From NCBI GenBank assembly GCA_963978895.1, contig OZ022241.1:25165573-25229572 (forward strand): a stretch of 64,000 nt of DNA, written 5' to 3'. A program made the translations under genes and the position numbers. Positions 52,861 through 54,834 of this stretch are shown piece after piece. The stretch is from Erpobdella octoculata. Taxonomy: Eukaryota > Annelida > Clitellata > Hirudinida > Erpobdellidae. Within the stretch, counting starts at the first letter, position 1. The number at the start of each line of letters is the position of its first letter. The notes below the pieces were generated by a model. It was not told where the DNA came from. It saw only the letters and a program-made list of their open reading frames with translations, and did not search any database.

Positions 52861-53049
52861 TGTTACGATATCACCAAATTGTATACCGGGCTCAATAGAA
52901 TGGTTTTGATGTTTTATTGGAAAATAATAAATGAAGCTTTGTTACGGCTAGTTATACCTTCTGGTTTAATAATAATGTCCATAATAGTTATTCGAAGTCC
53001 TTTAACGTCTATCAATGGGAAAACCTATTGTAAAAACAGCGATTTTACA
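52861..53049 (-). repeat. 3' LTR of the SAP element
   Basis: 189 bp, TG...CA on the minus strand; internal side borders the polypurine tract. The 5' side on the plus strand abuts (TA)n. Confidence 0.92.
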
Positions 53050-53075
53050 TTATTACCCCCTTCTTAATTCTGTTC
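53050..53075 (-). promoter_or_regulatory. Polypurine tract of the SAP element
   Basis: Minus-strand AAGAAGGGGGTAATAA just before the 3' LTR, the usual primer for plus-strand DNA synthesis. Confidence 0.7.
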
Positions 53076-53096
53076 GTCCCGAACAGCATATCGCTT

Positions 53097-54620
53097 TTAA
53101 GAAATGCGACTCGGCCACGAACACCAAAATACCTTGATCTTTACTCGTGGCTTTGACCGCAATTCGCAAACAACATGGTCAAGTCTCTTGACCGTTTGAC
53201 ACAGTTTCTTCCAGTCCTTCTTTGGCTCATCAACAGAATCTTTCTTTGGCTCATCGTCGCCATTTTTGCACGGTTCATCACAGCCTTTTTTGCAAGCCTC
53301 GTCCTGAACATCTTTGCACGGTTTATCGGAATTGTCTGCTTTTTCTTCTTCCTTCACATCCTTTAGATCTTTCTCAAGAAATTCTTCAAAAGGTTTTTCG
53401 AAAACACGTCGTTCCATAAATCCAATAAATCCCTTCATCAAACTGTTATTTGATTTTACAATGACTCTTAGTCTATCTGATCTAGAATCTTCTGTGAATT
53501 CATCTGATTTAAAACCCTCGGTACCGTTCTCTGTTCTTGTCTCATTTTTTCCAGAGTTTTTGCTTGCTGCATTGCTATTGTTGTTTTGGAGAAGTTCATC
53601 GCCGTCATGTTTGTTTTCTTCCAAGCTACAATCGAACGTTTTCTTTTCACATTCCAACTCGGCTCTTTCGTCGGTGTCAACTTTCGTATCGTCCAGCGGA
53701 TCTTTCTTCAAATTATCGCCATCATCTCTCAAATCAGTGTCTTCTTTTCTTGTCAAGTTAACTTTGACGTATTTTTCCATTGGAGTTTTGTCCGTTTCTA
53801 AATCCTCGGTTGCTTCATCCGAGTCAGATTCTTCACTAAAATCTGACCCTGAATATTCGGTGCCGTCGTCTGTTATGGAGGCTTCCGTTTCAGAACCGTC
53901 GCTGTATGGGTGAAAGCCATAGTTGTTATTGCCATTATTATAATCATCATCGTCACTTTCATCCTCATCGTTTTGCATTTCGTTTTCAACATTCTTCTCA
54001 TCTTCTTTAGTTTGGTTTTTGACGTCCAAACCGACTGTATCACTGTCACCATCTTTGCATGGTTCATCTTGAGCATCTTTGCAAGGTTCCTTATCATGAC
54101 CGTCTTTGACAGGCTCATCATCATGACCCACCTGACTTGTGCAGTCTGTACGGCCGTCATCCGTCACATGCTCTGAGACACAGCTGGTGGACTCCAGTTC
54201 AAATTGGGTTTCGCCGCAGCAACCCACATCACCAGCAGCCCGCTGGTCCAGAACCGTGTCCACCACTGCCTCAGCCAACCCTGTGACCAAACTCTCAACA
54301 GTTGTACCGGCTGCTGCCACTTTGTTTCCGTGGCCAAGAATCATTCCTTCTCCTGTCTTCTTCTGTGCTGCCATGTTTTCTTTCGCTCGTTGTCTTTCTT
54401 CCTCCAGCAATTTGTTTTTTAATTTCCTTCGCTTGACCACAGATTCCTCGTCAATGTCGAATAGATATTCGTCGTCGTCAGGCCCATAGCCCTCATTCAC
54501 TAACGCGGCTAAGAGGCGTTCCATAAGTTCGTCCTTTTTACCTGTATCGCTCAGGCCACGTTTCTCCAGCTCGTCTTTCATTTCACTCGCCCAAAGCTCA
54601 TCCAATGATTTCAAAACCAT
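53097..54620 (-). CDS. SAP-domain acidic protein, 507 aa, in gag position of an LTR element
   Basis: N-terminal SAP motif (~3-40: LWASEMKDELEKRGLSDTGK, then KDELMERL), a DNA-binding helix pair found in chromatin proteins and some transposon-encoded proteins. Then a basic helix (~60-85), a glycine/alanine segment, and a very acidic middle with repeated EPCKD/DEPCKDG units (~170-200 and again ~440-475) and long D/E runs. No CCHC knuckle, protease or RT motif. The frame is fully open between near-identical LTRs, so it is probably translated. It could be an unusual Gag or a captured host gene; the acidic Cys-containing repeats do not resemble standard Gag. The start ATG is the first after the primer site. 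Confidence 0.82.
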   Translation of the reverse strand: MVLKSLDELWASEMKDELEKRGLSDTGKKDELMERLLAALVNEGYGPDDDEYLFDIDEESVVKRRKLKNKLLEEERQRAKENMAAQKKTGEGMILGHGNKVAAAGTTVESLVTGLAEAVVDTVLDQRAAGDVGCCGETQFELESTSCVSEHVTDDGRTDCTSQVGHDDEPVKDGHDKEPCKDAQDEPCKDGDSDTVGLDVKNQTKEDEKNVENEMQNDEDESDDDDYNNGNNNYGFHPYSDGSETEASITDDGTEYSGSDFSEESDSDEATEDLETDKTPMEKYVKVNLTRKEDTDLRDDGDNLKKDPLDDTKVDTDERAELECEKKTFDCSLEENKHDGDELLQNNNSNAASKNSGKNETRTENGTEGFKSDEFTEDSRSDRLRVIVKSNNSLMKGFIGFMERRVFEKPFEEFLEKDLKDVKEEEKADNSDKPCKDVQDEACKKGCDEPCKNGDDEPKKDSVDEPKKDWKKLCQTVKRLDHVVCELRSKPRVKIKVFWCSWPSRIS

Positions 54621-54626
54621 TCTTGT

Positions 54627-54644
54627 ATCCCACTTCTGACACCA
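54627..54644 (-). promoter_or_regulatory. tRNA-Leu primer-binding site
   Basis: TGGTGTCAGAAGTGGGAT on the minus strand, 1 nt from the LTR end. It matches the complement of the tRNA-Leu 3' terminus including CCA. Confidence 0.85.
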
Positions 54645-54645
54645 A

Positions 54646-54834
54646 TGTTACGATATCACCAAATCGTATACCGGGCTCAATAGAATGGTTTTGATGTTTT
54701 ATTGGAAAATAATAAATGAAGCTTTGTTACGGCTAGTTATACCTTCTGGTTTAATAATAATGTCCATAATAGTTATTCGAAGTCCTTTAACGTCTATCAA
54801 TGGGAAAACCTATTGTAAAAACAGCGATTTTACA
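54646..54834 (-). repeat. 5' LTR of the SAP element
   Basis: 189 bp; one base difference from the partner seen (TCGTATAC against TTGTATAC, plus-strand reading). Bordered outside by TTAATATATA. Confidence 0.92.

What the first reader, a model, noticed from the sequence alone, without database searches (positions are those of the whole stretch)
52861..54834. LTR retroelement whose only gene is a SAP-domain acidic protein
Seen: 189-bp LTRs (TG...CA) differing at one base, a tRNA-Leu primer site, a polypurine tract, and one open 507-aa frame with an N-terminal SAP motif and acidic EPCKD-type repeats in the gag position. Known: non-autonomous LTR elements normally carry Gag, nothing, or a captured gene. 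Inference: this is a young non-autonomous family using a SAP/acidic chromatin-type protein as its own factor or as cargo. A SAP domain could tether the particle or its cDNA to chromatin.
Basis: partly seen in the sequence, partly recalled or inferred. Interest (0 to 1): 0.87.

Follow-up and report, generated by a model that had tools for sequence, protein, structure and literature searches.

The report
Young jumping-gene family with SAP protein
The stretch is one copy of a young, multi-copy family of LTR retroelements whose only gene encodes an acidic protein with a SAP (DNA-binding type) domain and which inserts at ATAT sites; related elements in the same genome begin their first gene with a similar SAP motif, so the domain looks inherited rather than picked up as cargo.

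Summary
The element lies on the minus strand and is multicopy: an LTR search scored 40 of 1439 candidates, all 99-100% identical; an ORF search scored 85 of 5079, 97-100% identical, 76 of 85 without a stop. All 26 loci behind the 40 LTR matches carry the SAP region; no pol was seen in them. The LTR is better read as 192 bp (TAATGT...AACA). Of 41 loci with readable ends, 39 have ATAT on both sides: a 4-bp target duplication. Cargo is unlikely: 17 of 20 fetched elements with the same primer site start ORF1 with a MVLK-like, SAP-type motif, and 12 Pfam SAP hits sit just after such primer sites. Between families dN is well below dS in these codons; within the family evidence for selection is weaker and partly biased. 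No pol-bearing partner was identified; one candidate frame lay in sequence that reads N. Best explanation: a young non-autonomous derivative of a SAP-ORF1 LTR clade, mobilised in trans, whose SAP protein serves its own cycle. A role of SAP in AT-rich targeting is untested.

The parts
54838..54841 (-). target-site duplication ATAT (5' side of the element)
   Evidence: ATAT flanks both sides in 39 of 41 loci with both ends readable
54646..54837 (-). 5' LTR, 192 bp if the TAA at 54835-54837 is counted (189 bp from TG)
54627..54644 (-). primer binding site TGGTGTCAGAAGTGGGAT, fits a tRNA-Leu 3' end (assignment recalled)
   Evidence: the site not followed by A occurs at 107 places in the genome, reversed control 0
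53097..54620 (-). 507-aa ORF: N-terminal SAP domain, then acidic Asp/Glu-rich repeats
   Evidence: 18 of 25 LTR-chosen copies keep a frame of at least 500 aa
54501..54587 (-). SAP domain, residues 12-40
   Evidence: Pfam PF02037, E 6e-8; nearest solved chain 1zrj_A, E 0.0095
53056..53065 (-). polypurine tract AAGAAGGGGG
   Evidence: sequence
52861..53052 (-). 3' LTR, 192 bp (189 bp from TG)
52857..52860 (-). target-site duplication ATAT (3' side), inside a (TA)n array

Best explanation
This is one copy of a young, multi-copy, non-autonomous LTR retroelement family. Shown: paired LTRs, primer site, polypurine tract, ATAT target duplication, one mostly intact ORF in the copies scored. Shown: other elements with the same primer site, 11 of 20 fetched also with a related LTR end (family copy L070 not counted), start ORF1 with a SAP-type motif. 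Inferred: the RNA is primed by tRNA-Leu and is copied and integrated at ATAT by the reverse transcriptase and integrase of a pol-bearing relative that shares the LTR ends. Inferred: the SAP/acidic protein descends from the N-terminal part of that clade's ORF1 (gag position) and is kept because it helps the element's own cycle, most plausibly by joining the particle or pre-integration complex and contacting DNA or chromatin.
For: Copies: 40 scored of 1439 candidates, 99-100%; 85 scored of 5079, 76 of 85 without a stop. All 26 loci behind the 40 LTR matches carry the SAP region. Ends: 37 of 41 loci share the same junctions. Relatives: 20 of 107 primer-site places fetched; 12 of 20 have an LTR end like ours at E < 1e-3, 74-98% identical over the matched part, one of them (L070) a rearranged family copy; 17 of 20 open with a MVLK-like start, 12 of these without a stop in the stretch read; Pfam calls the two peptides tested SAP (L071, L076). 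Independently, 12 Pfam SAP hits lie about 18-72 bases after one of 100 listed primer sites on the same strand, out of 88 distinct hits compared of 150. Between families these codons have dS of 1.5-2.0 or beyond correction and dN 0.14-0.42 in 6 comparisons. Within the family, shared changes are 17 N: 17 S against an expected N:S near 2.65, p 0.0025, no shared stop.
Against: No pol-bearing partner with these LTRs was identified. The within-family selection test is weak without bias: on the 21 LTR-chosen copies alone, shared changes are 12 N: 8 S, p 0.13; the other 21 copies were chosen by protein score, which disfavours N changes. Singletons are near neutral. No Gag, capsid or zinc-knuckle family matches the ORF. 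Between-family SAP comparisons rest on 20-32 codons and include broken copies; three pairs within the L080/L082/L083 group show dN about as high as dS. Six of 20 fetched primer-site elements show no LTR match to ours, and two more only chance-level ones. Only N-termini of relatives were read; one of them, L073, has the same first 31 residues and may belong to this family.
Confidence: 0.6

Rival explanations
1. The ORF is a passenger: the leftover N-terminal part of ORF1 from an internally deleted autonomous element, kept open only because the family is young.
For: Copies are young: 19 of 20 loci have both LTRs within one difference of the window's 5' LTR, though they were chosen by LTR identity. 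7 of 25 LTR-chosen copies have broken or shortened frames. Singletons are near neutral, 111 N: 51 S: 4 stops.
Against: No stop among 34 shared changes, half of which are synonymous; no shared change in residues 1-45, where singletons are 6 N: 7 S: 1 stop; SAP codons conserved between families.
Confidence: 0.22
2. The ORF is itself a divergent Gag: SAP at the N terminus, particle-forming part unrecognisable, pol supplied in trans.
For: Gag position right after the primer site; 25 of 150 scored hits of the related family have SAP-led frames of 450-511 aa, a usual Gag size.
Against: No Gag or zinc-knuckle family in Pfam; the rest of the ORF is acidic and repetitive, unlike a basic nucleocapsid; the single-sequence model shows no confident fold.
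Confidence: 0.12
3. Captured host gene carried as cargo.
For: SAP is common in host chromatin proteins; the nearest solved chain is a host SAP (1zrj_A, E1B-55kDa-associated protein 5, E 0.0095).
Against: Related elements carry the motif at the same place, within about 6-72 bases of the primer site.
Confidence: 0.05

Closest known systems
Ty3/gypsy-type LTR retrotransposons primed by tRNA-Leu (SURL, Steamer; recalled)
   Same: tRNA-Leu-type primer site, polypurine tract, first ORF right after the primer site
   Different: no pol and no recognisable Gag here; SAP domain at the start of ORF1; 5' terminus TAATG instead of TG
Non-autonomous LTR elements (TRIM, LARD; recalled)
   Same: LTRs, primer site and polypurine tract without pol; presumably moved in trans
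   Different: keeps one long, mostly intact ORF
Drosophila 297/17.6-type elements with ATAT targets (recalled, not compared)
   Same: 4-bp ATAT target duplication
   Different: those are autonomous; kinship not tested
SAP-domain chromatin proteins (SAFB, hnRNP U)
   Same: SAP domain
   Different: host genes; no LTRs

Membership tests
LTR retrotransposon (non-autonomous) | paired LTRs, primer site, polypurine tract | tested here: met
LTR retrotransposon (non-autonomous) | dispersed copies with target-site duplications | tested here: met
   ATAT both sides in 39 of 41
LTR retrotransposon (non-autonomous) | no pol of its own | tested here: met
   26 loci by internal length and blastn; the inserts in L009 and L010 judged by ORF lists only; Pfam on the window ORF
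Ty3/gypsy | RT and integrase of the Ty3 order in the mobilising element | tested here: inconclusive
   partner not identified; the gag-pol in L088 is preceded by acaacaattggcgcagtcgac and is another family
Ty3/gypsy | Gag capsid or zinc knuckle in ORF1 | tested here: not met
   Pfam, (profile search only)
SAP domain proteins | SAP above the curated cut-off | tested here: met
   32.6 bits, cut-off 23.9
SAP domain proteins | binds DNA | not testable with these tools
   needs a binding assay
Retrozyme | hammerhead ribozyme in the LTR | tested here: not met
   Rfam: only one match, Termite-leu at 20.9 bits against a gathering score of 51
Element with captured host gene | gene absent from related elements | tested here: not met
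   related elements start ORF1 with a SAP-type motif

The most novel reading that the evidence does not exclude
The SAP domain is a targeting module: in this LTR clade the first domain of ORF1 binds AT-rich DNA and brings the pre-integration complex to ATAT/(TA)n sites, and a derivative that kept only this protein multiplied by using it with another element's integrase. The array preference itself is not shown: 25 of 36 rows (same-locus repeats included) lie in TA arrays of 20 bp or more, while 35-73% of all ATAT sites in and next to the window do, so integrase specificity for ATAT could suffice.
Probability: 0.2. Interest if true: 0.82.

Novelty: new variant of a known kind. Interest (0 to 1): 0.55.

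Why it matters
A SAP domain as an inherited first domain of ORF1 in LTR elements, kept as the only gene of a successful non-autonomous family that inserts at ATAT, makes a testable case for element-encoded tethering that is separate from integrase. My paper searches for SAP with LTR, Gag, Gypsy or retrotransposon terms listed no paper whose title is on a SAP domain in an LTR element; one search listed 15 of 5,764 papers, and the library is open-access only.

Tried and rejected
Rejected: L088 as the pol-bearing partner. I first noted it as such and withdrew it: its gag-pol has its own leader and belongs to another family with 147 matches, more than 20 with frames of 1427-1477 aa. Rejected: L009 and L010 as longer autonomous forms; they are the same element with inserts. 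Rejected: the longest open frame (1867 aa) as evidence for a gag-pol, because a fetched piece of it reads N; the next frames in that list (1105, 751, 677, 585, 572, 555) were not checked and could be inflated in the same way, as could a 2396-aa frame. Inconclusive: structure of residues 1-180. Nothing found: relatives in viral contigs, in bacterial and archaeal genome contigs, in phages, and among proteins of the longer length class. Protein relatives in the large database were only P0001 (97%, 13 member sequences) and P0002, which looks like a frameshifted copy. The search with the LTR of L083, whose spacing would show the length of the relatives, did not complete.

Full report
What is there. 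At 52857-54841, minus strand, there is a complete LTR element: ATAT target copies, LTRs that differ at one base of 189, a primer site TGGTGTCAGAAGTGGGAT one base after the 5' LTR, an ORF of 507 codons that starts 6 bases later, and a polypurine tract before the 3' LTR. Pfam finds one family in the ORF, SAP, at residues 12-40.

A family, and a young one. The LTR search scored 40 of 1439 candidates, all 99-100% identical. These 40 matches fall in 26 loci: the window copy and L009-L033, of which L023 is the window copy's segmental duplicate. All 26 hold the SAP region next to LTRs; in 23 both LTRs lie whole in the stretch at hand, in L029, L030 and L031 one LTR is cut by the end of the stretch fetched. 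Four have large internal changes: L009 and L010 insertions, L011 and L018 deletions. No pol was seen; the two inserts were judged by ORF lists only. The ORF search scored 85 of 5079 candidates, all over residues 1-507, 97-100% identical, 76 of 85 without a stop; two of the 85 are the window copy and its duplicate. These counts are lower bounds for the family and are sorted towards copies like the query. Among 25 LTR-chosen copies (duplicate removed) 18 keep a frame of at least 500 aa and 7 do not.

Ends and target. Of 47 unique loci, 41 have both ends readable under the pattern used, which required AA before TG; 6 were left out (L022, L029, L030, L031, L042, L062; in L022 the 5' flank reads ATATAGA). 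Of the 41, 37 read ATAT|TAA|TGTAAAAT...TCGTAACA|ATAT, two have CAA or AAA in place of TAA with ATAT on both sides, and two lack ATAT on the 5' side only; all 41 have ATAT on the 3' side. Since TAA stands next to unrelated flanks and also precedes the inner 3' LTR, it belongs to the element. Insertions are frequent in TA arrays (25 of 36 rows, some of them the same locus twice), but so are ATAT sites: 620 of 1217 in the window, 255 of 726 in its first 50 kb and 850 of 1165 in the 40 kb beyond it. A preference beyond ATAT is therefore not shown.

Relatives. The primer site not followed by A, which excludes most family copies, occurs at 107 places, 0 for the reversed control. Twenty were fetched with about 120 bases downstream. 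By blastn 12 of 20 have an LTR end like ours at E below 1e-3 (L068, L070-L076, L079, L080, L082, L083), two have chance-level matches (L069, L087) and six none (L077, L078, L081, L084-L086). L070 is a rearranged family copy, and L073, identical to ours in its first 31 residues, may be one too. In 17 of 20 the first ATG after the primer site opens MVLK, or MDLK, MARK, MVLQ, followed by a leucine-rich stretch; 5 of the 17 have a stop within the stretch read (L069, L072, L074, L079, L087), and L068 leaves the pattern after about 12 residues. L070, L077 and L078 do not count here; L077 does have a Pfam SAP hit just after its primer site. Pfam recognises SAP in the two peptides tested, L071 and L076. 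From the other side, Pfam SAP was searched through the genome: 150 scored of 1628 candidates, many of them this family. Comparing 88 distinct of the 150 with 100 of 107 primer sites, 12 lie about 18-72 bases downstream on the same strand; 6 hand-picked hits lie 6-63 bases downstream. Together this touches 18 of the 100 sites; for the other 82 these capped lists say nothing. A second family, found with the N-terminus of L088, has 150 scored of 1933 candidates at 90-100% identity, 25 of 150 with frames of 450-511 aa. A SAP-type motif at the head of ORF1 is thus shared by several LTR families with this primer site, and a capture by this family alone is unlikely.

Selection. Between families (window copy against L071, L080, L082, L083, L084; L083 against L084) the first 20-32 codons have dS of 1.5-2.0 or beyond correction and dN 0.14-0.42. 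Within groups numbers are small; L080-L082, L080-L083 and L082-L083 show dN about as high as dS, with the last residues of L080 and L082 apparently out of frame. Within the family, 42 of 47 unique copies could be aligned: shared changes 17 N: 17 S: 0 stops against expected fractions 0.69: 0.26: 0.05 (p 0.0025), singletons 111: 51: 4 (p 0.11). Half of the copies were chosen by protein score, which is a bias; in those 21 alone shared changes are 2: 8 (p 0.0006). On the 21 LTR-chosen copies alone: shared 12: 8 (p 0.13), singletons 82: 42: 2 (p 0.04); with sharing judged on all 42 copies, shared 15: 14 (p 0.009), singletons 79: 36: 2 (p 0.15). I read this as suggestive. The reference allele in these counts was the majority base per column.

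Mechanism. Shown: structure, target duplication, absence of pol in the copies looked at, kinship of the SAP head. Inferred: tRNA-Leu priming (recalled tRNA end), trans-mobilisation, and use of the protein in the cycle. [quoted passage not shown] So SAP alone would be a weak tether and would more plausibly add to integrase specificity than replace it.

Limits. The pol-bearing partner is missing. The longest SAP-led frame lies in sequence of which the fetched piece reads N and proves nothing. The structure model is of low confidence. Of 51 genome searches sent 6 were answered, so the spacing of LTRs in the relatives, the tRNA genes and older copies stayed unknown.

Noticed in passing
window 51.6-55.3 kb and L023: The element and its flanks are duplicated 35.5 kb away with 99.8-99.9% identity over the pieces compared (segmental duplication).
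   Followed up: yes
L052, 1066-1500: A family copy with a tandem 5' end: LTR, primer site, LTR, primer site, ORF.
   Followed up: partly
L009, 2257-4550: Copy split by an insert whose ORFs look like a hAT-type transposase (by eye, not tested).
   Followed up: no
window 7656-10166, 14182-17226, 49269-50378, 51594-52628: ORFs resembling Penelope-like elements: RT found by Pfam in two of the four tested, one of them below the curated cut-off; the C-terminal GIY-YIG-like part is recalled.
   Followed up: partly
window 50771-51465, 54887-55400, 55762-56960: 18-bp minisatellite arrays next to TA arrays; similar ORF repeats in the flank of L009.
   Followed up: no
window 22994-26844, 41121-42745, 59115-60179: Non-LTR retrotransposon-like ORFs (endonuclease and/or RT by Pfam in three of the five tested).
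   Followed up: no
window 35553-36854: Host-like gene with a HABP4/PAI-RBP1 domain, open over 433 codons.
   Followed up: no
L088, 2809-4847: Another gypsy family with leader attggcgcagtcgac; 147 matches of its Gag in the genome, more than 20 with 1427-1477-aa frames.
   Followed up: partly
family-wide, primer site: Two primer-site variants segregate: G in 5 and T in 12 of 17 aligned copies at internal position 13, perhaps two tRNA-Leu isoacceptors; L011 and L028 show a further variant with an extra base.
   Followed up: no
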